From contig NZ_AP028672.1 in NCBI RefSeq assembly GCF_041154505.1, forward strand, positions 2,644,501 through 2,708,500: DNA of 64,000 nucleotides. Direction: 5' to 3'. The translations under genes were made by a program, and so were the position numbers. Source of the DNA: Acidovorax sp. A79 (GTDB lineage Bacteria; Pseudomonadota; Gammaproteobacteria; Burkholderiales; Burkholderiaceae_C). The notes below the pieces were generated by a model. That model saw nothing but the letters and a program-made list of their open reading frames with translations, was not told the origin of the DNA and searched no databases. Below are positions 21,774 through 33,802 of this stretch, piece after piece; the stretch's first letter is position 1, and every line of letters begins with the position of its first letter.

Positions 21774-21872
21774 GAAATTTCCCCCTGGATTCACAACACG
21801 CCCAGCAAAATCAATCAAAACAACAACTTATAGGCCATGCCAATGTGCGATAGCTGATTTCGCTGATTTTTA

Positions 21873-21880
21873 TGTATACA
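21873..21880. promoter_or_regulatory. TGTATACA operator, vanA promoter
   Basis: A perfect palindrome in the context TTTATGTATACAGCGCC, 97 bp before the vanA start. The AT-rich flank (about 21840-21880) is the likely vanA promoter region. Confidence 0.6.
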
Positions 21881-21976
21881 GCGCCGCCGGCATTTCGCAC
21901 AATTCGGACCAACGCCCAGGCTTTGCGGCCGTGCCGCCCCGGGCCCCACGACCCCCACAGAAAGAGACAAACCGCC

Positions 21977-23023
21977 ATGTATCCCAAGAACGCCTGGTAC
22001 GTCGCCTGCACACCCGACGAAATCGCGGACAAGCCCCTGGGCCGCACCATCTGCGGCGAGAAGATCGTGTTCTACCGCCCCGCGCCCGACCAGGTCGCCG
22101 CGCTCGACGACTTCTGCCCCCACCGGGGCGCACCGCTGTCGCTGGGCACCGTGTGCGACGGCCACCTGCAATGCGGCTACCACGGCCTGCGGGTGGAATG
22201 CACGGGCAAGTCGGTGTCCATGCCCGGCCAGCGCGTGCAGGGGTTTCCCAAGGCGCGCAGCTTTCCGGTGGTGGAGCGCTACGGCTTCATCTGGGTGTGG
22301 CCCGGCGACGCGGCCCAGGCGGACCCGGCCACCATCCACCACCTGCCCTGGGCCGACAACCCCGAATGGGCCTATGGCGGCGGGCTGTACCACATCGCCT
22401 GCGACTACCGCCTGATGATCGACAACCTGATGGACCTCACGCACGAGACCTACGTGCATGCCACCAGCATCGGGCAAAAGGAAATCGACGAGGTGCCCTG
22501 CAAGACCCGCGTGGAGGGCGACGAGGTCATCACCAGCCGCTTCATGGAAGGCATCGAAGCCCCGCCGTTCTGGAAGATGGCGCTGCGCATGAACGGCCTG
22601 CCCGACGACCAGCCCGTGGACCGCTGGCAGATCTGCCACTTCACGCCACCGAGCCACGTGCTGATCGAAGTGGGCGTGGCGCTGGCCGGCCACGGTGGCT
22701 ACGACGCGCCGGCCGACAAGAAGGCGTCGAGCATCGTGGTGGACTTCATCACGCCCGAGACCGAGACCTCCATCCACTACTTCTGGGGCATGGCGCGCAA
22801 CTTCAAGCCGCAGGACCCGTCGCTCACCACGCAGATCCGCGAGGGCCAGGGCAAGATCTTTGCCGAAGACCAGCAAATGCTGGAGCTGCAGCAGCAGAAC
22901 CTGCTGCGCTACCCCGAGCGCAAGCTGCTCATGCTCAACATCGACGCGGGCGGCGTGCAATCGCGCAAGGTGCTGGACCGCGCCCTGGCGGCCGAACGCG
23001 CGCCCGCGGAGCAGCCGGCATGA
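21977..23023 (+). CDS. vanA: vanillate O-demethylase, oxygenase subunit
   Basis: A 348-residue Rieske non-haem iron oxygenase that converts vanillate to protocatechuate and formaldehyde. The Rieske cluster ligands are Cys47, His49, Cys66 and His69 (CPHRGAP...CGYHG). The mononuclear iron ligands are His156 and His161 with bridging Asp153 (DLTHETYVH). The start at 21977 (MYPKNAWYVAC) is the conserved VanA N-terminus. It overlaps vanB by 4 bp (ATGA). Confidence 0.95.
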   Translation: MYPKNAWYVACTPDEIADKPLGRTICGEKIVFYRPAPDQVAALDDFCPHRGAPLSLGTVCDGHLQCGYHGLRVECTGKSVSMPGQRVQGFPKARSFPVVERYGFIWVWPGDAAQADPATIHHLPWADNPEWAYGGGLYHIACDYRLMIDNLMDLTHETYVHATSIGQKEIDEVPCKTRVEGDEVITSRFMEGIEAPPFWKMALRMNGLPDDQPVDRWQICHFTPPSHVLIEVGVALAGHGGYDAPADKKASSIVVDFITPETETSIHYFWGMARNFKPQDPSLTTQIREGQGKIFAEDQQMLELQQQNLLRYPERKLLMLNIDAGGVQSRKVLDRALAAERAPAEQPA

Positions 23024-23985
23024 CCGCGCAGGAGACCCTGCAGGTCCGCGTGGCCAGCAAGCGGGCCGAGGCCGAAGGCATCGCCAGCTTCGAGCTGGCG
23101 CGCGTGGACGGCGCGGCGCTGCCCCCTTTCAGCGCGGGCTCGCACATCGACGTGCACCTGCCCGGGGGGCTGACCCGGCAGTACTCGCTGTGCAACGCCT
23201 CGCACGAATCGCACCGCTACCGCATCGCGGTGCTGCGCGACCCCGCTTCGCGTGGCGGCTCGGTTGCCATGCACGACAGCGTGCACGAGGGCGACGTGAT
23301 CACCATCAGCACGCCGCGCAACCACTTCGCGCTGCACCCGGCGCAGCGCACGCTGCTCCTGGCGGGCGGCATCGGCGTGACGCCGCTGCTGTGCATGGCC
23401 GACCGGCTGGCGCACACGGGCGCCGACTTCACGCTGCACTACTGCACCCGCTCGGCCGAACGCACGGCGTTCGCCGGCGAGATCGCGGCCTCGGCCATGG
23501 CGCCGCACACGCAGTTCCACTTCGATGCGGGCGCTCCCGGCCAGAAGCTCGACCTGCCCGCGGCGCTGGCCGGCCCCGGGCCCGACAAGCGCCTGTATGT
23601 GTGCGGCCCCCCGGGCTTCATCGACCACGTGGTGACCACCGCCAAGGCCCTGGGCTGGCCGCAGGACCATATCCACCTCGAATACTTTGGCACCCCCGCG
23701 CAGGACACCTCGGGCGATCAGGACTTTGACGTGCGCATTGCCAGCACCGGCAAGGTCTACCGCATTGCCTGCGATGTGTCGGTGGTGGAGGCCCTGCGCA
23801 GCGAAGGCATCGACATCCTGACCTCGTGCGAGCAGGGCGTGTGCGGCACCTGCCTCACGCGCGTGCTGGAGGGCGAGGTGGACCACCGGGACATGTACCT
23901 CACCGACGAAGAAAAAGCGGGCAACGAGCAGTTCATGCCCTGTTGCTCGCGCGCGCGCAGCAAGCTGCTGGTGCTGGATCTGTGA
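23020..23985 (+). CDS. vanB: vanillate O-demethylase, ferredoxin reductase subunit
   Basis: A 321-residue electron-transfer partner of VanA. A flavin domain comes first (HLPGGLTRQYSLCNA, the RxYS flavin motif), then an NAD domain (LLLAGGIGVTPLLCMA; LYVCGPPGFID), and last a plant-type 2Fe-2S ferredoxin domain with CEQGVCGTC from about residue 270 and a final Cys in FMPCCSRA. It passes electrons from NADH to VanA. Translation is coupled to vanA. Confidence 0.95.
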   Translation: MTAQETLQVRVASKRAEAEGIASFELARVDGAALPPFSAGSHIDVHLPGGLTRQYSLCNASHESHRYRIAVLRDPASRGGSVAMHDSVHEGDVITISTPRNHFALHPAQRTLLLAGGIGVTPLLCMADRLAHTGADFTLHYCTRSAERTAFAGEIAASAMAPHTQFHFDAGAPGQKLDLPAALAGPGPDKRLYVCGPPGFIDHVVTTAKALGWPQDHIHLEYFGTPAQDTSGDQDFDVRIASTGKVYRIACDVSVVEALRSEGIDILTSCEQGVCGTCLTRVLEGEVDHRDMYLTDEEKAGNEQFMPCCSRARSKLLVLDL

Positions 23986-24198: not shown

Positions 24199-24549
24199 CT
24201 ACTCTTCCACCGCCGTCCGGATGGTGTCGCGGCCGTGGCGGTCCTTGGCCCGGCCCAGGTCGGTATCGAGGGCGCGGCCCAGCTTGTCGGCGGCACCGAT
24301 GAAGGCGTTGGCCATCTTGTCGGCTTCGTCGGTCACGGTGATGGGCTGGCGACCCGTCACGCGCGCTTCGATGCGGCAGCGCTTGTCGTTGGCGCCGGAC
24401 TTGCCCGCATCCAGGTCCGACAGAAACACCTCCAGCCGCGTGACGTGATCCTGAAAGCGCGACAGGCGGCTTCTGGATTCATCCGTGATCCACTGCGCGA
24501 GCGACTCGCCGCCGTGGATGTGGTCGTCTGTGTTGACGTGTACTTGCAT
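24199..24549 (-). CDS. ribosome-hibernation (HPF/RaiA-type) domain protein
   Basis: A 116-residue protein of the sigma-54-modulation/HPF fold: a first strand MQVHVNTDDHIHG, a helix ALAQWITDESRSRLSRFQDHVTRLEVFLSDLDAG, then RCRIEARVTGRQPITVTDEADKMANAFIGAADKLGRALDTDLGR. The protein has no long C-terminal dimerisation tail, so it is the short type. HPF-fold proteins bind the ribosome under stress; some solitary paralogues have not been tested. A clean AAAGGAACC site precedes the ATG at 24549. Confidence 0.82.
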   Translation of the reverse strand: MQVHVNTDDHIHGGESLAQWITDESRSRLSRFQDHVTRLEVFLSDLDAGKSGANDKRCRIEARVTGRQPITVTDEADKMANAFIGAADKLGRALDTDLGRAKDRHGRDTIRTAVEE

Positions 24550-24793
24550 CGGGGTTCCTTTCAGATGACGTTGCTTGAGAAACCTGTCTGACTGGGAGTC
24601 GTCGGCTGCGGATTGGCCGCAGCGGTCCATTTTTTTACCGTCTTTGGCCCCATGGCTCGGCCATGGGGCTGCAAATCCAGCAAAACCATCCTCGCTGGGC
24701 CAATCTTCGCTTCGACGCTCCAGGTCAGACAGGCTCCTGACCCCATGATGGCACCGCGGGCCATGTCCCCGGTGAATACATGTCAAAACATCC
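24550..24793. other. 244-bp leader region with a perfect 10-bp hairpin
   Basis: Between the HPF-like gene and the cyclase stop. It contains the perfect inverted repeat GCCCCATGGC (24647-24656) / GCCATGGGGC (24660-24669) with a 3-base loop, and no long T run on either side. A 67-codon open frame on the minus strand (24561-24764) has no recognisable similarity and is not called as a gene. The hairpin may act in the HPF leader RNA or as a binding site. Confidence 0.45.
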
Positions 24794-26803
24794 TCACAAC
24801 TTGTCCAGCGCCACGGCGGGCGACCAGTCGCCGCCAGCGGGCAAGGCGCGCGCCAGGGCCACGCGCTCCTGCAGGCGCAGCGCCGCCGCATCGCCGGGCA
24901 CGCGCGCCAGCACCTGCGCCAGATGGCCATTGGCGCGCTCCCAGTCGCGCGCATGGAAGGCGCCCAGCGCCGCCAGGCTGGCATCGCGCACCACGGCATC
25001 GTCGCAGGGCGTGAACACGCGCACCGGCTCGGTCTTGCCCTTGACGATCACATCGTCCAGCGCGCGCAGCGCCACCGAGGCGGGCAACTGCGCGGCCGTG
25101 GCGGCCGACAGCAGGATGCCCGTGCCAAACGCCTTGTTGGCCCCCTCCAGCCGGGCCGCGAGGTTCACCGCGTCGCCGATCGCGGTGTACGAGAAGCGCT
25201 GTTCCGACCCGACGTTGCCCACCACCACCCGCCCCGTGTGCAGGCCGATGCGCATGTGGATGGGCGGCAGCCCCCGCGCCACGAGGTCGGCCACCAGCGC
25301 CTGCATCGCCTGCTGCATGGCGATGGCCGCCTGCACCGCATGCGCGGCATGCTGCGGGTCGTCCAGCGGCGCGCCCCAGAACGCCATCACGGCATCGCCG
25401 ATGAACTTGTCCACCGTGCCGCCGCTGGCATGCACGATGGGCGTCATCGCGTTGAAATAGCCGGTGAGGACCTCCACGGTCTGCTCCGCGCTCAGCTGCT
25501 CGGACAAGGTGGTGAAGTTGGCCAGGTCGGTGAACATCAGCGTCACCTCGCGCGCCTCGCCGCCCAGGCGCATCAGCCCGGGCTGCGCGATGAGGCGCGA
25601 GACCACGGCGGGGGGCACGTACTGCGCGAACATCGCCCGCGTCTGGCGGGCCCGCTGGCGCACGATGGCAAAGCCCACGAGCGCGGCCGCGCCATAGACG
25701 GCCACCGCGGCCGCGGCGGGCAGCAGCGGCGGCCACCAGAGGCGAAAACCGGCGAACAGCCACCACGACACCGCCCCCATCGCCACCACCAGCGCCCCCG
25801 TGAGCGCCGCCGCGCCCGCCGGGTGCAGGCGGCGGCTGCCCCACAGCAGCACGGGCACCAGCAAGGCGGTGAGCGCGAGCGTCCAGCCCTCCGAAACGCT
25901 GCGCAGCCCGCCGCCGGACAGGAAGTTGTCCACCAGCGTGGCCTGCAGCTCCACCCCCGGGAACAGCCGCTCGCCCCCCGCCGTGCCAAACGGCGAATTG
26001 AAGAGATCGGCCTGCGAGCGCGTGAGCTCGGTGGCCGTGCGCGCCGAGCGCCCCACCAGCACGATCTTGCCTTTGAAGAAGCCCGCGGGCAGCAGGCCCG
26101 GCTCCAGCGCCTGGTAGTACGAGCGCGTGTCAAAGGTGCCACGCGGGCCCCGGTAGCCAATCCAGTCGAAGTGGCGCAGCACCGGCATCTGGCCGCGCGC
26201 CTCGGCCGCGCGCTGCGCCAGGCGCAACGCAAAACTCTCGCGCGCCACCGGGGCGCGGCGCACCACGAAGTCGTCGTCCGGCTCCACGCCGGCATCGCCC
26301 GCATCGGCACCGGCGTCCAGAAAACGCTGCAGCGGCAGAACGTCCATCCACAGCGCGGCGTTGGCACTGTCGATCTTCTCGCGGGTGGCGGCCAGGACCA
26401 CGGGGCCGGTCTCGGCGATGCTGCGCGCCAGGGCGGCGTCTTGCGCCTCGGTGGACGGGTCGGCGAACACGATGTCCAGGCCCACGGCGGCGGCGCCCTC
26501 CGCGTGCAGGCGCCGCAGCAGGGCCGCATGCATGCCGCGCGGGAACGGCCAGGTCTGCTGCAGTTCCTGGAAGGTGGGTTCGTCGATCGCCAGGATCACC
26601 ACGGGCAGGCCCGGACGCTGCGGCGCGGCCAGGGCCGTGAGCACGTCGAAGGTCTTGAACTCCAGCGCGTGCCACGGGCGGCTGAGCGTGGCGGCGCCCA
26701 CCAGCAGCAGCGCCAGCGCGCAGGCCCCCAGCGACAGCAGCCGCTGCCGGCGCCGCGCGGTGGGCGCGGCAGGCTCAGAAGCGGTAGCGCGCGTCCAGGA
26801 CAT
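24794..26803 (-). CDS. CHASE2-domain class III adenylate cyclase, membrane-bound
   Basis: A 669-residue inner-membrane signalling enzyme predicted to make cAMP. One N-terminal helix (about 22-40) leads into a periplasmic CHASE2 sensor domain (about 50-300; IDEPTFQELQQTWPFPRGMHAALLRRL). Three helices (about 306-322, 333-352, 358-382) follow, then the cyclase domain (about 415-600). All catalytic residues are present: metal Asp426 (FTDLANF) and Asp470, base-selecting Lys466 (VDKFIGD) and Thr540, and transition-state Asn547 and Arg551 (VNLAARLE). The start lies 29 bp inside the 3' end of the FecR-TPR gene, so the two are translationally coupled. Confidence 0.92.
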   Translation of the reverse strand: MSWTRATASEPAAPTARRRQRLLSLGACALALLLVGAATLSRPWHALEFKTFDVLTALAAPQRPGLPVVILAIDEPTFQELQQTWPFPRGMHAALLRRLHAEGAAAVGLDIVFADPSTEAQDAALARSIAETGPVVLAATREKIDSANAALWMDVLPLQRFLDAGADAGDAGVEPDDDFVVRRAPVARESFALRLAQRAAEARGQMPVLRHFDWIGYRGPRGTFDTRSYYQALEPGLLPAGFFKGKIVLVGRSARTATELTRSQADLFNSPFGTAGGERLFPGVELQATLVDNFLSGGGLRSVSEGWTLALTALLVPVLLWGSRRLHPAGAAALTGALVVAMGAVSWWLFAGFRLWWPPLLPAAAAVAVYGAAALVGFAIVRQRARQTRAMFAQYVPPAVVSRLIAQPGLMRLGGEAREVTLMFTDLANFTTLSEQLSAEQTVEVLTGYFNAMTPIVHASGGTVDKFIGDAVMAFWGAPLDDPQHAAHAVQAAIAMQQAMQALVADLVARGLPPIHMRIGLHTGRVVVGNVGSEQRFSYTAIGDAVNLAARLEGANKAFGTGILLSAATAAQLPASVALRALDDVIVKGKTEPVRVFTPCDDAVVRDASLAALGAFHARDWERANGHLAQVLARVPGDAAALRLQERVALARALPAGGDWSPAVALDKL

Positions 26804-29800
26804 AGCGGGTCTTCCTGCGGTCCGACTTCGGCGCCCACAGGTTCATGGCGGCCACACCCACGACCCAGTGCTTGTCCTGCGATTCCCAGAATCCCATGAG
26901 GTCCACGCCCCAGCCCGGCGCGATGCGCGTGAGGTTCTCCTTGTCCTCGAAGCGCTCCGACCGGTACACCGCGCGGCCGCTCAGGTACAGCCGCTGCGGG
27001 CTGGCCCAGGTGGCGCCCACCGCCAGCGTGTGGCGCGGGATGTAGGGGATGCGGCCCACGGGCACGTCCGCGTCGTGGCTGCGGCTTTCGCTGCCCTGGT
27101 AGAGGTACTTGGCATAGCCCGACCAGCGCCGGCTGAACATGTGGTTGAGGCCCGCGCCCAGGGTCTTGAGCGTGCCGGAGTCGAAGCTGGGCGTGTCTTC
27201 CAGCAGGTCGGTGGTCGAGAGGTTGACGAGCTGCGCGTTGCGCATTTCTTCGAGGAACGGCAGGCTGGGCGTGCGCAGGTCCACGCCCACGGTGCCGGGG
27301 TTGCGCACGCGCAGGTGGTCCGCGCGCAGGTTCAGGAAGGTGCTAGCACCCAGCTCCAGGCCCACCTGCGCCACGGTGCGCTTGTGGCGGCCGCCGGCCT
27401 CGACCAGACGGTCCTCGACGGGAATCCCCGCCGTTTCCATGCTGGTGAGCGTCGATACGCTGAGCGGGCGCAGCCAATCCTGATAAGCCATGCGCACCGT
27501 GGTGCCCTGCGCTGGCTGCCAGACGAGGCCGACGCGCGGCGTGACCACGCGTTCCATCTCGGCGCGGCGCGCCTCCTCCTCGCTGAAGTGGTCCAGATTC
27601 ACCAGGTAGCTCTGCGTCAGGCCATCGACGCGGTGGCGTATCTGCTGCAGGCCCAGCGCCGCATCCAGGTTCAGCGCGGGGTCCAGGCGCTGGGTCGTGG
27701 CCAGGGTCAGGGCGGTGTAGCGCCGGTCCACGCGGTTGTACCCGCCCACCAGCAGGTAGTCGCGGTACTCGCCCACGCCCGGGATGTTGGCGCCCACGGC
27801 CGCCTCGCCCCCGATCAGGTTGTTCTGGCGTTCGCGCACATGCTCCAGCGCCACGCTCCAGCGGCTGCCGGGCGCGGTGTCCACCGTATGGCGCAGTTGC
27901 AGGTCGGTGAACTGTTTCTTGGGTTCGCTGCTCACGCCCATCAGGCTCACGAAGGGCGGCTGCAGATACAGCGTGGGGTAGCGCAGCAGCAGGATGTCCT
28001 CCACGCTGCGCCCCAGCTTGATCCAGGTCTGCTCGGTCGGCCCCCAGCGGTAGGACATGCCCAGGGCGCCCTGGGTGCTCTTGTTGTCCATGGAGGTCTC
28101 GAACAGGTTCTGGCTGCGCAGGCGCATGTCGAACTGGTTCACATAGGCAAACAGGTTGATGCGCTCGGTGGGCTGCATGCCTGCGCCCACCGTGACCGCG
28201 CGTGCGCGCACGTCGCCATAGCCGCCCCGCACGGCCGGGGCATCGTTGACCTGCAGATCGAACGGAAACTCGCTGGCATTGGCCGACTGCGCCTTGAAGA
28301 ACCACGACACGGGCACGTGGGTGTTGTCCATGCCGTTGAGGGTGACCGCGGGCGCCCGCATGCGGTACAGGTCCTTGTCCAGCGTCACCCCCACGGCCCC
28401 GTGCGCGCCCGGCTGCTGCAGCAGCGACGAATACCGCTGGCTCGCGCCAAACGCCATCGGGTCCGTGAGGAAGCCCTGGAACAGCGCCGAGTTCTTGTTG
28501 AACTCGCCCGGGTAGCGGTCCGCCAGGAACAGGTGGCTGCCGCCCCAGTACGGGTAGAAGCTCTGCTGCGCCAGCTCCAGCGCCCAGTCCTCCATGCCGA
28601 AGAACGCGAGCGAGGCGCCCAGGTTGGCGCTGCCCTTCTGGTCATTGGCCACCTGGTTGAGGGACTTGAGATAGGGCATGCGTTCGACGGCGGCGCGGGC
28701 CGCCTCCACGGCCTCGCCAGGCTGGAACAGGTCGGTGTGGATCTGCGCGAGCAGCATGTACGGGACGGGGTCCTTGTCGTCCAGGGCGCTGGCCTGGTGC
28801 AGCGTGGCCAGGGCATCCTGGTGGCGGCCGAGCTGGTAGTACGCCACGGCCGTCCAGGTCTTGGCGCGCGCGTAGCGGGGCTCCATCACCCCGGCGCGCA
28901 GGAACACGTCGAGCGCGGCCTGCGGCTGGCCCTGCTTGAGGTGCAGCAGCCCCTGCCCCGTGAGCGCCACATAGTCCGCCGGGTTCTCGCCGAGCGCCGT
29001 GTTGAATGCCTGGCCCGCCTCCGTGAACTGGTTGGCGAAGGTCTCCAGCGTGCCCAGTTCGCCCCAGGCGCCCGGGCTCTGCGGCGCGAGCGCCAGGGCC
29101 TGCTTCAGGCTGGCGCGGGCCGGACCGGAGTCCTCGCGCTCCGTGTGCGCGCTGCCCAGGCCCTGCCAGCCGCGCGCGTCGCCCCCGGCCAGCCGCGTGG
29201 CCTCGGTGTAGGCCGCCAGCGTGGCGGGAGCATCGCCCCGGCGGCGGGCCAGCTCGGCGCGCACCAGGGCGATCTCCGCGTGCGCGGTGCCCTGCGCCGG
29301 GGCCAGCGTGGCCGTGGCGTCCTCCACGCGGTCGCTCAGCATCTGCACCCGGGCCAGCTGGGCCACCAGTGCGGGGTGCGCGGGCCAGTGCTGCAACGCC
29401 GTGCGCAGGGTCTGCGCGGCGGCGGCACCATCGCCGTCCATGAGCTGCAGGTCCGACTGCATCAGCCACGCGGGCAGCGGGGCGGCGGCCGGCGCGGCGG
29501 CGGCGAGCTGGCGCGCCAGCAGTTCGCGGGCGGCCAGCACCTCGCCGGACTGCAGCGCGATGGCGGCGTCCATCACCGCCGCCCACGGTGCGGGCGCCTG
29601 GCCCCGCGCCTGCGCCAGCGCGGCGCGGGCGGTGGCCAGATCGCGGGCGGCCAGCGCGGCGCGCACCGGCGCGAGCGGCGGCGGCACGGGCTCGGCGGCG
29701 AGGTGCGGCACGGGGTCGGCGCGCAGGGCGTTCACCCACTGGATGCGGTCGCGCGGCTGGCTCAGCACGAGCTTGACCGGGGCCTTGCCCACCTCGGCGA

Positions 29801-30347
29801 TGGCGGCCTCGTTGGCGCCCACCGAGACCTGGCCCTGCGCATTGGAGAACTCCACCGTGCCCGACAGCACCGTGAGCAGCGTGCGGCCATCGTCCTCCAC
29901 GGCGAGGTCCCAGTCCGTGCCGCGGATCGCGGCGGTGGCGGCCGGCGTCTCCAGGTTCAGCCGGCTGCCATCGGCCCGGCGCGTCTGCGTCCACGCGCGC
30001 CCGGCGTTGAGCAGCAGGGTGGTCACGGGCTGGGCCGGCGTGGCCACGCCCTTGACCTGCAGCACGGTGTTCTGGTGCAGGCGCAGCTGCGTGTCGTCGG
30101 CGAACAGCAGGGCCATCTTGGCGGCCTGGCGCGTGCGCACGAAGTCGCCCGTGGCCAGGGCCTGGGCGGGGCGGGCGGGCTGCCAGTCGGCGGCGGCCGC
30201 GGCGCGCTGGTCGCCCGTACCCTGCAGGCTGACGATCTCCGCGGCCGCGCCCGCGGGCACGGCCGCGTGGCCGGAGAGCGGCCAGGCCAGGGCGGTCAAC
30301 GCGGCCAGCGCCGTGAGGGCGGGCAGGCAATTCTTCTTGTGGGGCAT
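26775..30347 (-). CDS. FecR-domain / TPR / outer-membrane beta-barrel protein
   Basis: A 1190-residue exported protein. A signal peptide (MPHKKNCLPALTALAALTALAWPLSGHAA) is followed by a FecR domain (about 60-180; LNLETPAATAAIRGTDWDL) and then by many TPR-like helix pairs (about 230-640; for example GWQGLGSAHTEREDSGPARASLKQALALAPQSPGAWGELG). The last 500 residues are rich in alternating aromatic and polar strands (for example YAKYLYQGSESRSH) and the protein ends ...YVLDARYRF with a terminal Phe, the signal for outer-membrane barrel insertion. The start at 30347 is the one giving a signal peptide. It overlaps the CHASE2 cyclase gene and is most likely its partner. Function not established. Confidence 0.85.
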   Translation of the reverse strand: MPHKKNCLPALTALAALTALAWPLSGHAAVPAGAAAEIVSLQGTGDQRAAAAADWQPARPAQALATGDFVRTRQAAKMALLFADDTQLRLHQNTVLQVKGVATPAQPVTTLLLNAGRAWTQTRRADGSRLNLETPAATAAIRGTDWDLAVEDDGRTLLTVLSGTVEFSNAQGQVSVGANEAAIAEVGKAPVKLVLSQPRDRIQWVNALRADPVPHLAAEPVPPPLAPVRAALAARDLATARAALAQARGQAPAPWAAVMDAAIALQSGEVLAARELLARQLAAAAPAAAPLPAWLMQSDLQLMDGDGAAAAQTLRTALQHWPAHPALVAQLARVQMLSDRVEDATATLAPAQGTAHAEIALVRAELARRRGDAPATLAAYTEATRLAGGDARGWQGLGSAHTEREDSGPARASLKQALALAPQSPGAWGELGTLETFANQFTEAGQAFNTALGENPADYVALTGQGLLHLKQGQPQAALDVFLRAGVMEPRYARAKTWTAVAYYQLGRHQDALATLHQASALDDKDPVPYMLLAQIHTDLFQPGEAVEAARAAVERMPYLKSLNQVANDQKGSANLGASLAFFGMEDWALELAQQSFYPYWGGSHLFLADRYPGEFNKNSALFQGFLTDPMAFGASQRYSSLLQQPGAHGAVGVTLDKDLYRMRAPAVTLNGMDNTHVPVSWFFKAQSANASEFPFDLQVNDAPAVRGGYGDVRARAVTVGAGMQPTERINLFAYVNQFDMRLRSQNLFETSMDNKSTQGALGMSYRWGPTEQTWIKLGRSVEDILLLRYPTLYLQPPFVSLMGVSSEPKKQFTDLQLRHTVDTAPGSRWSVALEHVRERQNNLIGGEAAVGANIPGVGEYRDYLLVGGYNRVDRRYTALTLATTQRLDPALNLDAALGLQQIRHRVDGLTQSYLVNLDHFSEEEARRAEMERVVTPRVGLVWQPAQGTTVRMAYQDWLRPLSVSTLTSMETAGIPVEDRLVEAGGRHKRTVAQVGLELGASTFLNLRADHLRVRNPGTVGVDLRTPSLPFLEEMRNAQLVNLSTTDLLEDTPSFDSGTLKTLGAGLNHMFSRRWSGYAKYLYQGSESRSHDADVPVGRIPYIPRHTLAVGATWASPQRLYLSGRAVYRSERFEDKENLTRIAPGWGVDLMGFWESQDKHWVVGVAAMNLWAPKSDRRKTRYVLDARYRF

Positions 30348-30532: not shown

Positions 30533-30568
30533 CCCCGCACGGCCCCTTCCTACAGACGCCGTGCGGGG
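30533..30568. promoter_or_regulatory. long inverted repeat upstream of the sigma-54 promoter
   Basis: CCCCGCACGG (30533-30542) and CCGTGCGGGG (30559-30568) are perfect 10-bp arms with a 16-base spacer; GCACC and GGTGC flanks extend the symmetry. It ends 14 bp before the -24/-12 promoter, so it may be an activator or repressor binding site. It could also fold in RNA read from the left. Confidence 0.5.
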
Positions 30569-30581
30569 TCGGTGCTACAAA

Positions 30582-30599
30582 TTGGCATACCCCTTGCAT
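30582..30599 (+). promoter_or_regulatory. sigma-54-type -24/-12 promoter
   Basis: TTGGCATACCCCTTGCAT has GG at 30584-30585 and GC at 30596-30597 with exactly ten bases between, and matches TTGGCA-N6-TTGCA closely. The expected start site is near 30609, inside a GCACCGGGTGC palindrome (30601-30611), leaving a leader of about 36 bases before the ATG at 30645. Confidence 0.65.
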
Positions 30600-30644
30600 C
30601 GCACCGGGTGCACACCATTTGCGTACTGCCCGGAGCCCTCCACC

Positions 30645-31517
30645 ATGCCCGCTTCCCGCCGCCTCAAGATTGGTCTGTCCGCCTGTTTCCAGCATGCCGA
30701 CCCCACCCGCCCGCTTTTCACCGGCAAGACGCTGCAGTATGTCGAGCAGTCCATCGCGCACTGGCTCATGTCCGCCGGCGCGATGGTCGTGATGGTGCCC
30801 TGTCCCACGGGCGAGACGGCGCGCGGCGACGTGACGCTCGCGCACTACGCCGACTGGCTCGACGGCGTGGTCATGCACGGCGGCGCCGACGTCTGGCCGG
30901 GCAACTACGGCGAGGAGCCGCTGCGCGAGGAGTGGCTGGGCGACCGGGTGCGCGACCTGTACGACCTGGCCGTGGTGAAAGCGTTCGCCGAGGTGCGCAA
31001 GCCCATCTTCGGCGTCTGCCGGGGCCTGCAGCTGATCAACGTGGCGTTTGGCGGTGCGCTCTACCAGGACCTGCAGACCCAGCACCCCGGGGCGCTGGAG
31101 CACCGCAACGCGACCACGTACGACCAGCATTTCCACGACATCCATATCGTGCCGGACTCGCACCTGGCCAAGCTGTATCCCGACACGCCCCGCGCCCGCG
31201 TCAACAGCATCCACCACCAGGGCATCAAGCGGGTGGCGCCGGATTTTGTCGTCGAGGCCCTGAGCGAACCCGACGGCGTGCCCGAAGCGATCCGCCTGAA
31301 GCCCGCGCCAGGGCGCGGCTACATCGCCGCCACGCAGTGGCATCCGGAATTTCACAAGGTGGGCGCGGACACCTTGGACGACACCGCCATCCTCGACGAC
31401 TTCCTGTCCGCCTGTGCGCTGGCCAAGGCCAACCCCCCGCCGCACCGCGGCCCCCTGCGCATCCGCGACCGGGCGACACGGATGCTGCGGCAGGCGCTGC
31501 ACAGGACCCGGGAGTGA
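30645..31517 (+). CDS. class I glutamine-amidotransferase-fold hydrolase (PuuD-like)
   Basis: A 290-residue cytoplasmic enzyme of the gamma-glutamyl-GABA hydrolase family (peptidase C26), which frees glutamate from gamma-glutamyl amides in putrescine or amine use. The catalytic triad is visible: Cys125 in FGVCRGLQLINV, His233 and Glu235 in TQWHPEFH. The C-terminus (residues 245-290) is longer and basic (RGPLRIRDRATRMLRQ). The sigma-54-type promoter just upstream fits nitrogen control. No other Puu-pathway genes are nearby, so the substrate is uncertain. Confidence 0.88.
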   Translation: MPASRRLKIGLSACFQHADPTRPLFTGKTLQYVEQSIAHWLMSAGAMVVMVPCPTGETARGDVTLAHYADWLDGVVMHGGADVWPGNYGEEPLREEWLGDRVRDLYDLAVVKAFAEVRKPIFGVCRGLQLINVAFGGALYQDLQTQHPGALEHRNATTYDQHFHDIHIVPDSHLAKLYPDTPRARVNSIHHQGIKRVAPDFVVEALSEPDGVPEAIRLKPAPGRGYIAATQWHPEFHKVGADTLDDTAILDDFLSACALAKANPPPHRGPLRIRDRATRMLRQALHRTRE

Positions 31518-31544: not shown

Positions 31545-32504
31545 TCAGGCGGGCTGCGCCCGCACGGCTTGCCCGGCCTTGACCTCGGCGCCCGGGCCGC
31601 CGGCCAGGGCCGTCCCCACCACATCCTCCATCTGCGCCCGCAGCCAGCGGTGCGCCGCATCCTGCTGGTAGCGCGCGTGCCAGACCAGGTACATCGGCAG
31701 GCGCGGGCAAGGCACCGGCACGGGCGCGCTGGCCAGCGCCGAGAGCGCCGTGCGGCCCAGCAGCGAGGGGGCGGTGGTGAGCAGCGGCGTGCCGCGCACG
31801 AAGGCGGGCAGCGCCCCGAAGCCCGGCACGCGCACCGCGAAGCGGCGGTGCAGGCCGCGGGCCGCCAGCTGGCGGTCCAGCGCCAGGCCGCGGTGCGCCT
31901 CATAGGCCACCGTCACATGCGCCGCCGCGAGATAGTCCTGCGCGTCGCGCGGCGCCTCGCGCACGGCAGGGTCGTAAAACACCCGGTACTGGTCCTCGAA
32001 CAGGCGCTTTTGCAGGATGTCGGTGCCGTCCGGCGGGCGCGGGGTGATGGCCAGCTGGCATGCATCCGAGCGCAGCAGGTCCGCGCCGGGCGCGCCGCTG
32101 GGCACGATGCGCAGCGTGACATCGGGCGCGGCCTCGCGCAGGCGGGCGGCCAGGGGCGGCAGCAGCAGGTCGCGCTGGAAATCGTTGGCGGCCAGGGTCA
32201 GGTCGGCCCGCCAGCGGGCGGGGTCGAACGCGCAGCCCTGCGCGAACTGCTGCATCTGGCGCAGCAGCTCGCGCGCCGGCGCCGCCAGGCTTTCGGCCCG
32301 CGCGGTGGGCACGATACCCCGCCCCCGCTTGACGAACAGCGGGTCTCCCGTGATGGCGCGCAGCTTGCCCAGCAGGTGGCTCACCGCCGACTGCGTGACG
32401 CCCAGGCGGGCGGCGGCGGCGGTGATGCTGCCGGTTTCCAGGACCGCCACCAGCAGTTGCAGCAGGTGGGCGTCCAGGCCGGACCAATCATCGATTCTGC
32501 TCAT
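31545..32504 (-). CDS. LysR-family regulator of the second ligAB operon
   Basis: A 319-residue LysR protein with the helix-turn-helix at about residues 7-65 (GLDAHLLQLLVAVLETGSITAAAARLGVTQSAVSHLLGKLRAITGDPLFVKRGRG), the NodD/LeuO-like TQSAVSH...DPLFVR subtype. The start at 32504 (MSRIDDWSG) was preferred to the ATG at 32540. It is divergent from the LigA-type gene with only 84 bp between starts, so both promoters overlap and it is the likely regulator. Confidence 0.86.
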   Translation of the reverse strand: MSRIDDWSGLDAHLLQLLVAVLETGSITAAAARLGVTQSAVSHLLGKLRAITGDPLFVKRGRGIVPTARAESLAAPARELLRQMQQFAQGCAFDPARWRADLTLAANDFQRDLLLPPLAARLREAAPDVTLRIVPSGAPGADLLRSDACQLAITPRPPDGTDILQKRLFEDQYRVFYDPAVREAPRDAQDYLAAAHVTVAYEAHRGLALDRQLAARGLHRRFAVRVPGFGALPAFVRGTPLLTTAPSLLGRTALSALASAPVPVPCPRLPMYLVWHARYQQDAAHRWLRAQMEDVVGTALAGGPGAEVKAGQAVRAQPA

Positions 32505-32588
32505 GCGTTCGATGATCTTTGCCCCCTTCATCTTTGGCAATGCACGCCCGACACTGCGGCCTGACCTACATCAAGCCACGGAGACATC

Positions 32589-32945
32589 GTGACCACGAAA
32601 CCCACCCCGCCGCGCCCCATCCCGGGCACCACGCCGTTCGACGGCGCCCAGGCCCGCAAGGGCTATGCGCTCAACAAGATGTGCTTCTCGTTCAACGACG
32701 AGGCCAACCGCAAGGCCTTCGCCGAGGACGAGGAGGCCTACATGCAGCAGTACGGCCTGAACGCGCAGCAGGCCGCCGCCATCCGCGCCAGGAACGTGCT
32801 GCAGCTCATCGCGGCGGGCGGCAACGCCTACTACCTGGCCAAGTTCGCGGGCATCTTCAAGCTCGACATGCAGGACATCGGCGCGCAGCAGACGGGCATG
32901 ACCAAGGACGAATTCAAGGCCATGCTCGTGGCCGCAGGCCAATAA
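32589..32945 (+). CDS. LigA-type extradiol dioxygenase small subunit, second copy
   Basis: A 118-residue protein with a GTG start and a GGAG site six bases upstream. It shares TPFDGAQARKGYALNKMCFSF, VLQLIAAGGNAYYLAKFAGI and QTGMTKDEFKAMLVAAGQ with the first LigA, but lacks its longer C-terminal tail. It is followed after 11 bp by the LigB-type gene. As the two subunits stay separate, it differs from gallate dioxygenase (DesB), where they are fused. The aromatic substrate is not known; protocatechuate or a methoxylated/hydroxylated relative is likely. Confidence 0.87.
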   Translation: MTTKPTPPRPIPGTTPFDGAQARKGYALNKMCFSFNDEANRKAFAEDEEAYMQQYGLNAQQAAAIRARNVLQLIAAGGNAYYLAKFAGIFKLDMQDIGAQQTGMTKDEFKAMLVAAGQ

Positions 32946-32956
32946 GGAGACATCAC

Positions 32957-33802
32957 ATGGCACAACTCATCGGTGGCCTCGGCACCTCGCACATCCCCGC
33001 CATTGGCGGCGCCATCCACAAGGGCCTGCAGAACGAGCCCTACTGGAAACCCTTCTTCGACGGCTTTCCGCCCATCCGCCAGTGGCTGCAGGCCCGCAAG
33101 CCCGATGTGGTCGTGACGTTCTACAACGACCACGGCCTGAACTTCTTCCTCGACAAGATGCCCACCTTCGCCGTGGGCGCCGCCGCCGAGTACCACAACG
33201 CCGACGAGGGCTGGGGCATTCCCACGCTGCCGCCATTCGCGGGCGAGGTGGACCTGTCGTGGCATCTCATCAACACGCTGATCGACCAGGAGTTCGACGT
33301 GACCACCTGCCAGGAGATGCTGGTGGACCACGCCTGCACGCTGCCGCTCAAGCTCTTCTGGCCCGAGGGCGACTGCCCCGTGACGGTGGTGCCGGTGTGC
33401 ATCAACACCGTGCAGTTCCCGCTGCCGTCGGCCAAGCGCTGCTATGCGCTGGGCAAGGCCGTGGGCCAGGCCATCCAGAGCTGGGACAGCGACAAGAAGG
33501 TGGCGGTGATGGCCTCCGGCGGCCTGAGCCACCAGCTCGACGGCGAGCGCGCGGGCTTCATCAACAAGGCGTTCGACCTGCAGTTCATCGAGAGCCTGAC
33601 CACCAACCCTGAATGGGCCACGCAGTTCAGCGTGCACGAGCTGGTGGAGAAGACGGGCACCCAGGGCGTGGAGCTGCTGATGTGGCTGGCGATGCGCGGC
33701 GCGCTCAGCGCCGCCGCGCCGGGCGTGCGCCGCGTGCACAGCAACTACCACATCCCGATCTCGAACACCGCCACCGCTGTCATGGCGCTGGAGGCGGTGT
33801 AG
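32957..33802 (+). CDS. LigB-type extradiol dioxygenase catalytic subunit, second copy
   Basis: A 281-residue class III extradiol dioxygenase subunit with an AAGGAG site before the ATG. His12 (TSHIPAIG), His59 (YNDHGLNFF) and the acid-base His in GGLSHQLDG are present. The metal-ligand region reads TQGVELLMW where the first copy has SEGIELVMW, so one of two nearby Glu residues is Gln here. It is clearly diverged from the copy at 6689-7555 and may cleave a different catechol. No downstream pathway genes follow it. Confidence 0.88.
   Translation: MAQLIGGLGTSHIPAIGGAIHKGLQNEPYWKPFFDGFPPIRQWLQARKPDVVVTFYNDHGLNFFLDKMPTFAVGAAAEYHNADEGWGIPTLPPFAGEVDLSWHLINTLIDQEFDVTTCQEMLVDHACTLPLKLFWPEGDCPVTVVPVCINTVQFPLPSAKRCYALGKAVGQAIQSWDSDKKVAVMASGGLSHQLDGERAGFINKAFDLQFIESLTTNPEWATQFSVHELVEKTGTQGVELLMWLAMRGALSAAAPGVRRVHSNYHIPISNTATAVMALEAV

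What the first reader, a model, noticed from the sequence alone, without database searches (positions are those of the whole stretch)
24794..30347. FecR-TPR-outer-membrane-barrel protein overlapping a CHASE2 adenylate cyclase: a possible trans-envelope cAMP circuit
The first gene encodes one chain with a signal peptide, a FecR domain, a long TPR array and a beta-barrel-like C-terminal half ending in Phe. The next gene begins inside its last codons and encodes an inner-membrane cyclase with a large periplasmic CHASE2 domain and all catalytic residues. Seen: domain order, overlap, terminal Phe, intact active site. Known: FecR and CHASE2 proteins are often neighbours. Inferred: the barrel protein spans or docks at the outer membrane and its periplasmic FecR/TPR part touches CHASE2 to set cAMP output. 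The fusion of FecR and TPR to a barrel, coupled to a nucleotide cyclase, is the least described system in the window.
Basis: partly seen in the sequence, partly recalled or inferred. Interest (0 to 1): 0.72.

Follow-up and report, generated by a model that had tools for sequence, protein, structure and literature searches.

The report
Likely outer-membrane receptor and cyclase pair
A bacterial gene pair probably encodes a large outer-membrane receptor and an inner-membrane enzyme that makes the signal cAMP; it is related to the NsrA-CyaK pair that Sinorhizobium uses to sense its plant host, and here, in a relative of Acidovorax, what it senses is unknown.

Summary
Gene A (26775-30347, minus strand, 1190 aa) is one chain: export signal, FecR-like domain, ten TPR-type helix pairs, an 80-residue helical linker and a predicted 22-strand barrel ending in Phe (pLDDT 88.6). 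The barrel matches TonB-dependent receptors and the FecR part matches PupR; no plug domain was found. Gene B (24794-26803) overlaps A by 29 nt and is a CHASE2 class III cyclase with six expected active-site residues. The proposed circuit is plausible but not undescribed: A is homologous over its length to Sinorhizobium meliloti NsrA and B to CyaK, encoded in the same order; that pair is a published outer-to-inner-membrane cAMP relay. Of 66 related loci with room downstream, 60 have a CHASE2 cyclase near A. Beyond the known case: the window's barrel is not acidic as NsrA's is, so the uL2 recognition proposed for NsrA may not carry over; the linker is the most conserved part within the window's group, though not towards NsrA; and in one clade the receptor genes sit beside large RCC1-repeat proteins. 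Direct FecR/TPR-CHASE2 contact, outer-membrane location and cAMP output were not tested. Verdict: new member of a known kind.

The parts
26775..30347 (-). Gene A: NsrA-like FecR-TPR-barrel protein, 1190 aa
   Evidence: ORF; Pfam; BLASTP to NsrA 26% identity over residues 10-1178, E 2e-59 for the single comparison; structure
30261..30347 (-). Export signal of A, residues about 1-29
   Evidence: by eye from the sequence; helix 10-21 in the model, low confidence there
29766..30242 (-). FecR-like beta domain of A, residues about 36-194
28683..29681 (-). TPR region of A, residues 223-555, ten helix pairs
   Evidence: Pfam; helices in model, paired by hand
28428..28667 (-). Helical linker between TPR and barrel, residues 561-640; most conserved region within the window's group
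   Evidence: mean column conservation 0.78 against 0.66 FecR and 0.45 barrel in 49 sequences; only 17 of 80 identical to NsrA; four short helices; no PDB sequence relative (best E 0.23)
26778..28409 (-). Predicted 22-strand barrel of A, residues 647-1190, C-terminal Phe
26775..26803 (-). 29-nt overlap of the end of A with the start of B
24794..26803 (-). Gene B: CHASE2 class III nucleotide cyclase, 669 aa
   Evidence: Pfam; 38% identity to CyaK over 603 alignment positions
25859..26710 (-). CHASE2 domain of B, residues 32-315
   Evidence: Pfam E 3e-44
25025..25552 (-). Cyclase domain of B, residues 418-593, with D426 K466 D470 T540 N547 R551
   Evidence: Pfam; residues; conservation in 67 pairs

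Best explanation
A and B form an NsrA-CyaK-type trans-envelope receptor-cyclase pair. A sits in the outer membrane as a 22-strand barrel of the TonB-dependent-receptor type without the usual plug; its outside loops bind an unknown extracellular signal. The change passes through the helical linker to the TPR arm and the FecR-like domain in the periplasm, which act on the CHASE2 domain of B and switch the cytoplasmic cyclase, so that cAMP (predicted product) changes and a cAMP-binding regulator responds. Shown here by computation: homology, architecture, predicted fold, gene pairing, intact cyclase residues. Inferred from the NsrA-CyaK precedent: outer-membrane receptor role, direction of signal, cAMP output. 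Not shown in any of my calls: direct contact of FecR/TPR with CHASE2, the ligand, the cAMP target.
For: A aligns with NsrA nearly end to end (26%, residues 10-1178, E 2e-59 for the single comparison), and the barrel halves match as profiles on their own (hhalign local probability 99.85, E 9e-31, 468 columns; reversed-profile control probability 0.2, E 0.29). B is 38% identical to CyaK. In S. meliloti nsrA and cyaK overlap by one base in the same order. 60 of 66 loci with room have a CHASE2 cyclase near A: 55 downstream on the same strand, 4 upstream divergent, 1 upstream same strand. Divergence of A and B is correlated over 28 non-redundant pairs (Mantel r 0.82, 0 of 5000 permutations as high). 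Published passages: the signal response needs NsrA and CyaK; cAMP synthesis rises through NsrA. In 67 pairs, D426, D470, N547 and R551 are kept in 67, T or S at 540 in 67, K466 in 60.
Against: 5 of 66 loci have no CHASE2 match in the stretch held, and in 1 (L062) a divergent CHASE2 gene is cut by the contig end so its output is unknown. The loci are skewed to close kin: 34 of 66 are Comamonadaceae, 21 titled Acidovorax. In a sample of 60 genomes of the family only 5 hold a full-length relative (6 copies, 5 with a CHASE2 cyclase in the stretch fetched), so it is an accessory trait. Correlated divergence can come from shared descent alone. The NsrA clade is separated from the window's by a branch of 2.21 changes per column in a quick tree with flagged long branches, and only the FecR part is well conserved to NsrA (62 of 127 identical; linker 17 of 80, barrel 101 of 448), so function may have shifted. 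No contact, location or activity was measured.
Confidence: 0.8

Rival explanations
1. A is an export channel, not a receptor: a TPR-barrel protein that moves proteins to the surface, with the cyclase reporting secretion state.
For: TPR plus barrel is the layout of known exporters (Slam, PgaA, BcsC; recalled). In one clade, six loci (L054, L055, L069, L070, L073, L081) have large RCC1-repeat proteins beside the gene, with export signals by eye in several; L056 has a TPS-domain protein followed by its ShlB-type pore; L059 has a subtilase next to the gene and L042 one beyond the cyclase.
Against: 22 predicted strands, and the barrel rows listed are TonB-dependent receptors (exporters not being listed is not evidence against them); NsrA is reported as a signal receptor; no such protein was found among the two neighbours of the pair that I scanned in the window.
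Confidence: 0.1
2. A is a TonB-dependent importer whose nutrient uptake is coupled to cAMP.
For: Barrel of that class; several sources name relatives TonB-dependent receptor.
Against: No Plug domain (PF07715) in A at E 0.001, in NsrA at E 0.1, or among the 25 commonest families of 32 family members (two rarer families not shown). The TonB box was not tested.
Confidence: 0.07
3. The two genes are co-transcribed but act apart: B senses the periplasm by itself and A does another envelope job.
For: CHASE2 proteins exist without an NsrA-like neighbour: this genome has three others, a Ser/Thr kinase and a second cyclase (L100) and a histidine kinase beside a LysM-FecR protein (L101). Seven A relatives had no CHASE2 gene in the stretch held (L031, L045, L047, L054, L059, L060, L104).
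Against: Gene pairing in 60 of 66 loci with three gene arrangements; the genomes of all seven relatives without an adjacent CHASE2 gene still encode a CHASE2 cyclase, in L054's case on the same contig just beyond the stretch; NsrA-CyaK genetics.
Confidence: 0.08

Closest known systems
NsrA-CyaK of Sinorhizobium meliloti
   Same: Same architecture (FecR, TPR, about 550-residue barrel part), same gene order with overlap, homology of both proteins, barrel profiles align.
   Different: 26% and 38% identity; separate clade; linker only 17 of 80 identical, with extra residues in NsrA there. Net charge of the barrel part +6 in the window against -27 to -49 in 16 of 16 rhizobial relatives examined; predicted outside parts carry 44 acidic and 39 basic residues, against 57 acidic loop residues reported for NsrA. 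The window's genome is close to Acidovorax (100% over residues 1-238 of A to Acidovorax sp. sif1233); its lifestyle is unknown to me.
FecA-FecR and PupB-PupR cell-surface signalling
   Different: Here the FecR-like domain is fused to the barrel through TPRs with no plug found, no inner-membrane helix was seen in A, and the neighbouring inner-membrane protein is a cyclase, not an anti-sigma factor.
LysM-FecR with CHASE2 histidine kinase (BiofilmReg operon, PMC5192318, passages seen)
   Same: A FecR protein paired with a CHASE2 transducer; this genome has such a pair too (L101).
   Different: LysM instead of TPR and barrel; kinase output.
Campylobacterota cluster: CHASE2 cyclase, phosphodiesterase, FecR outer-membrane protein, TPR protein (PMC9239204, passages seen)
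   Same: CHASE2 adenylate cyclase with FecR and TPR partners.
   Different: As the passage words it, FecR and TPR are on separate proteins and a phosphodiesterase is included; not compared by sequence here.

Membership tests
NsrA-CyaK type receptor-cyclase pair | One chain of about 1200 aa with FecR, TPR and C-terminal barrel | tested here: met
   FecR and TPR_2 in 32 of 32 members of alignment A3, the window included
NsrA-CyaK type receptor-cyclase pair | Homology to NsrA over the length, barrel included | tested here: met
NsrA-CyaK type receptor-cyclase pair | Adjacent CHASE2 class III cyclase homologous to CyaK, active-site residues intact | tested here: met
NsrA-CyaK type receptor-cyclase pair | Receptor in the outer membrane and needed for cAMP synthesis | not testable with these tools
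   needs bench work
uL2-sensing NsrA of rhizobia (ligand type only, not the family) | Strongly acidic outside loops, suggested in PMC7529298 for binding the basic ligand | tested here: not met
   net charge +6 against -27 to -49; 44 acidic and 39 basic residues in predicted outside parts
TonB-dependent transporter | 22-strand barrel | tested here: met
   (a prediction)
TonB-dependent transporter | N-terminal Plug domain | tested here: not met
   no PF07715 in A at E 0.001; not among the 25 commonest families in 32 members
FecR/PupR anti-sigma regulator | FecR domain on an inner-membrane anchored anti-sigma protein | tested here: not met
   chain ends in a barrel and the model shows no membrane-length helix beyond the signal; hydropathy scan found none either, though it also missed the signal
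Slam-type TPR-barrel exporter | 14-strand barrel after the TPR domain (recalled) | tested here: not met
   22 strands predicted; TPR_Slam matched weakly in 2 of 32 members (best E 6e-4)
LysM-FecR/CHASE2 kinase pair | LysM domain and histidine kinase output | tested here: not met

The most novel reading that the evidence does not exclude
This is one branch of a wide class of trans-envelope cyclase receptors built like cell-surface signalling turned inside out: the FecR-like domain rides on a plugless TonB-receptor-type barrel, and the 80-residue helical linker, highly conserved within the window's group, takes the plug's place as the moving gate that carries ligand binding to the TPR arm and on to CHASE2. 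The natural signals are proteins: a host ribosomal protein for NsrA, and in the Gallionella-type clade the large RCC1-repeat proteins encoded next door.
Probability: 0.2. Interest if true: 0.68.

Novelty: new member of a known kind. Interest (0 to 1): 0.42.

Why it matters
It places a pair of the NsrA-CyaK kind, published for a legume symbiont, close to Acidovorax and, by the survey, in records from several groups of Pseudomonadota and a few metagenome-assembled genomes labelled Acidobacteriota, Myxococcota and Nitrospirota (binning not checked). So outer-membrane control of a nucleotide cyclase looks like a wider device than a symbiosis trait. The predicted structure gives concrete parts, the FecR domain and the 80-residue linker, on which signal transfer across the envelope can be tested.

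Tried and rejected
Tried and not informative: the PDB sequence search with A returned TPR proteins in the 60 of 62 rows shown, no barrel; NCBIfam matched A only below its cut-offs. The linker alone had no convincing PDB relative (best E 0.23, photosystem I) and, searched in the protein set, the 120 hits listed of 749 all carry TPR domains; one (P0115) also bears an unrelated transporter domain, perhaps a contig artefact; no clear new architecture was seen. A regular expression for RCC1 repeats missed known cases and was dropped; the RCC1 statement rests on Pfam for L054, L055, L069, L070, L081 and on the genome search for L073. Foldseek 'pdb' and a second structure (NsrA, alignment A3) could not be run: the machine was busy each time.

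Results against my reading: the linker is the most conserved part only within the 49 sequences of the window's group; to NsrA it is 17 of 80 identical, no better than the barrel (101 of 448), while FecR is 62 of 127. The tree tool's label test for RCC1 (6 rows against 3 rows of the other group only) gave 2 changes, with 133 of 500 shuffles as low, so it does not by itself show clustering; the six do lie in one nine-row fork (support 99), which also holds L083, for which no RCC1 gene was seen, and L056 and L060. 7 of 67 paired cyclases lack K466 (Q 3, S 2, T 1, G 1), and 7 of 67 A relatives do not end in Phe.

Considered and rejected: A as an ordinary TonB-dependent transporter (no plug found), as a Slam-type exporter (22 strands, receptor precedent), and the idea that the FecR-TPR-barrel fusion is new (NsrA has FecR and TPR by Pfam and a homologous C-terminal half).

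Limits of the survey: patterns came from the FecR end (AAIRGTDW and a neighbour) and only the best 80 hits of 366 were kept. Of 79 loci, 13 had under 2200 bases downstream and were left out of the 66. Kinases were not searched for as such: the 60 CHASE2 hits counted are those that also match a cyclase profile that I built; the only other CHASE2 match among the 66 is L062. L054 has a CHASE2 cyclase on the same contig about 1.8 kb beyond the stretch held. The 67 pairs include two duplicates (L103 and L038, L106 and L075, same contigs by length), the window and two plasmid loci. The genomes were chosen because of what was seen at the loci, so it shows only that in four (L054, L055, L069, L073) all listed RCC1 matches lie at this locus; the listing leaves out weaker matches. 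In one search, 48 of 60 genomes had some match at E 0.001, mostly TPR or FecR pieces; full-length means both the FecR and the barrel part were matched in one frame.
Full report
What is there. Gene A (26775-30347, minus strand) encodes 1190 residues and gene B (24794-26803, minus) 669 residues; they overlap by 29 nt. Pfam finds FecR, TPR repeats and TonB_dep_Rec_b-barrel in A, CHASE2 and Guanylate_cyc in B. A ends in Phe; B carries D426, K466, D470, T540, N547 and R551 at the positions that I recall as metal-binding, substrate-binding and catalytic in class III cyclases. Threonine at the second substrate position is what I recall for many bacterial adenylate cyclases, so cAMP is the predicted product.

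The precedent. A tblastn of A against plasmids hit a gene annotated nsrA in S. meliloti (31.8% over residues 64-750 in two pieces, E 4e-24). Its locus shows nsrA (1200 aa) followed by cyaK (649 aa), overlapping by one base. A and NsrA align over nearly the whole length (26%, E 2e-59 for the single comparison); B and CyaK are 38% identical; NsrA has FecR and TPR by Pfam, but its barrel does not match the Pfam TonB barrel. Barrel halves compared alone as profiles match with probability 99.85 and E 9e-31 over 468 columns; with the rhizobial profile reversed the probability is 0.2. Methylocystis carries a similar pair on a plasmid. From passages of PMC7529298: NsrA is an outer-membrane receptor, CyaK the cognate inner-membrane cyclase, both needed for signal 1; a uL2 ribosomal protein is the candidate signal; the outside loops of the NsrA barrel carry 57 acidic residues. 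From passages of PMC13001267: cAMP synthesis by CHASE2 cyclases rises on sensing uL2 through NsrA. The primary NsrA paper (Garnerone 2018) is not held; I know it only from those citations and recall. Passages of PMC5498481 were also seen and not used.

Pairing elsewhere. A genome scan returned 79 loci with an A relative (best 80 of 366). 66 have at least 2200 bases downstream (34 Comamonadaceae, 21 of them or others titled Acidovorax; 61 Pseudomonadota, 2 Myxococcota, 1 Acidobacteriota, 1 Nitrospirota, 1 unlabelled). In 60 a CHASE2 cyclase is near A (55 downstream same strand, 4 divergent upstream, 1 upstream same strand), in 5 no CHASE2 match is held (L031, L045, L054, L059, L060), and in L062 a divergent CHASE2 gene is cut by the contig end. 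The genomes of seven relatives without a CHASE2 gene in the stretch held (those five, L047, and L104 from the family survey) all encode a CHASE2 cyclase elsewhere (7 of 7), which fits the published use of CyaD1/D2 besides CyaK by NsrA. In 67 pairs (two duplicates), D426, D470, N547 and R551 are kept in 67, K466 in 60, T or S at 540 in 67. A and B divergence correlate (Mantel r 0.82 on 28 non-redundant pairs, 0 of 5000 permutations), which shared descent alone could give. Within a sample of 60 genomes of the family, 5 have a full-length relative, 6 copies in all; five of the six have a CHASE2 cyclase in the stretch fetched.

What differs from NsrA. The window's clade and the NsrA-Methylocystis clade are joined by a branch of 2.21 changes per column (quick tree; long branches flagged). 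Net charge of the barrel part is +6 in the window and -22 to +15 over 49 rows of its group, against -27 to -49 in 16 of 16 rhizobial rows. So the electrostatic uL2 binding suggested for NsrA may not apply here. Within the 49 sequences the linker 561-640 is the most conserved part (0.78; FecR 0.66; barrel 0.45), but to NsrA it is only 17 of 80 identical, against FecR 62 of 127 and barrel 101 of 448. I read the linker as the signal-transfer element, possibly replacing the plug; this is inference, and the last figures speak against a mechanism fixed in sequence across both clades.

Other CHASE2 proteins of this genome. Four in all: B; a CHASE2 Ser/Thr kinase followed by a PP2C phosphatase and a second CHASE2 cyclase (L100); and a CHASE2-PAS histidine kinase after a LysM-FecR protein (L101), the latter like the BiofilmReg operon of PMC5192318. 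The genome has 20 matches to the cNMP-binding domain and 4 to the class III cyclase domain, so possible receivers for cAMP exist but none is assigned.

RCC1 clade. Six loci (L054, L055, L069, L070, L073, L081) have large RCC1-repeat proteins beside the receptor gene. In the genomes of L054, L055, L069 and L073 all listed RCC1 matches lie there; those of L070 and L081 have others too. The six lie in one nine-row fork of the receptor tree. I take this as a lead for a self-made protein ligand or cargo; the window has nothing of the kind among the two neighbours of the pair that I scanned.

Literature. Searches (20 of 475 papers listed) showed no held paper describing this pair in Acidovorax or relatives; subscription papers are mostly not held, so absence from print is not claimed.

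Verdict. What would raise it is proof of the linker-gate mechanism or of protein ligands encoded next door in the RCC1 clade.

Noticed in passing
L054, L055, L069, L070, L073, L081: Large RCC1-repeat proteins, export signals by eye in several, lie beside the NsrA-like gene in these six loci, all within one nine-row fork of the receptor tree; in four of the genomes all listed RCC1 matches lie there. They could be ligands or cargo.
   Followed up: partly
L042, L059 (subtilase), L056 (TPS-domain protein and ShlB-type pore), L060 and L081 (InlB B-repeat proteins): Other kinds of probably secreted protein near NsrA-like genes.
   Followed up: partly
window 24199-24600, minus strand: A Ribosomal_S30AE (hibernation-factor-like) gene follows B; a similar gene is downstream of the pair in 14 related loci. 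Curious because NsrA's candidate signal is a ribosomal protein.
   Followed up: partly
window 30561-31517, plus strand: Peptidase_C26 gene divergent from A; a similar gene lies divergent upstream in 15 related loci.
   Followed up: no
window about 21872-23985 and 32500-33800: Genes that look like a vanillate O-demethylase pair and an extradiol ring-cleavage dioxygenase, by eye from the translations: the pair sits among likely aromatic-catabolism genes.
   Followed up: no
L100 (own genome C1:2744000-2759500): CHASE2 Ser/Thr kinase, PP2C phosphatase and CHASE2 cyclase in a row; a CHASE2 protein with a Ser/Thr kinase motif and a CHASE2 cyclase also lie within about 5 kb of each other in four other genomes (G008, G045, G071, G072).
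   Followed up: partly
L043 and L059 (same Limnobacter genome): Two NsrA-like genes in one genome: one with a CHASE2 cyclase, the other interrupted by an in-frame stop, without an adjacent CHASE2 gene and followed by a subtilase gene.
   Followed up: no
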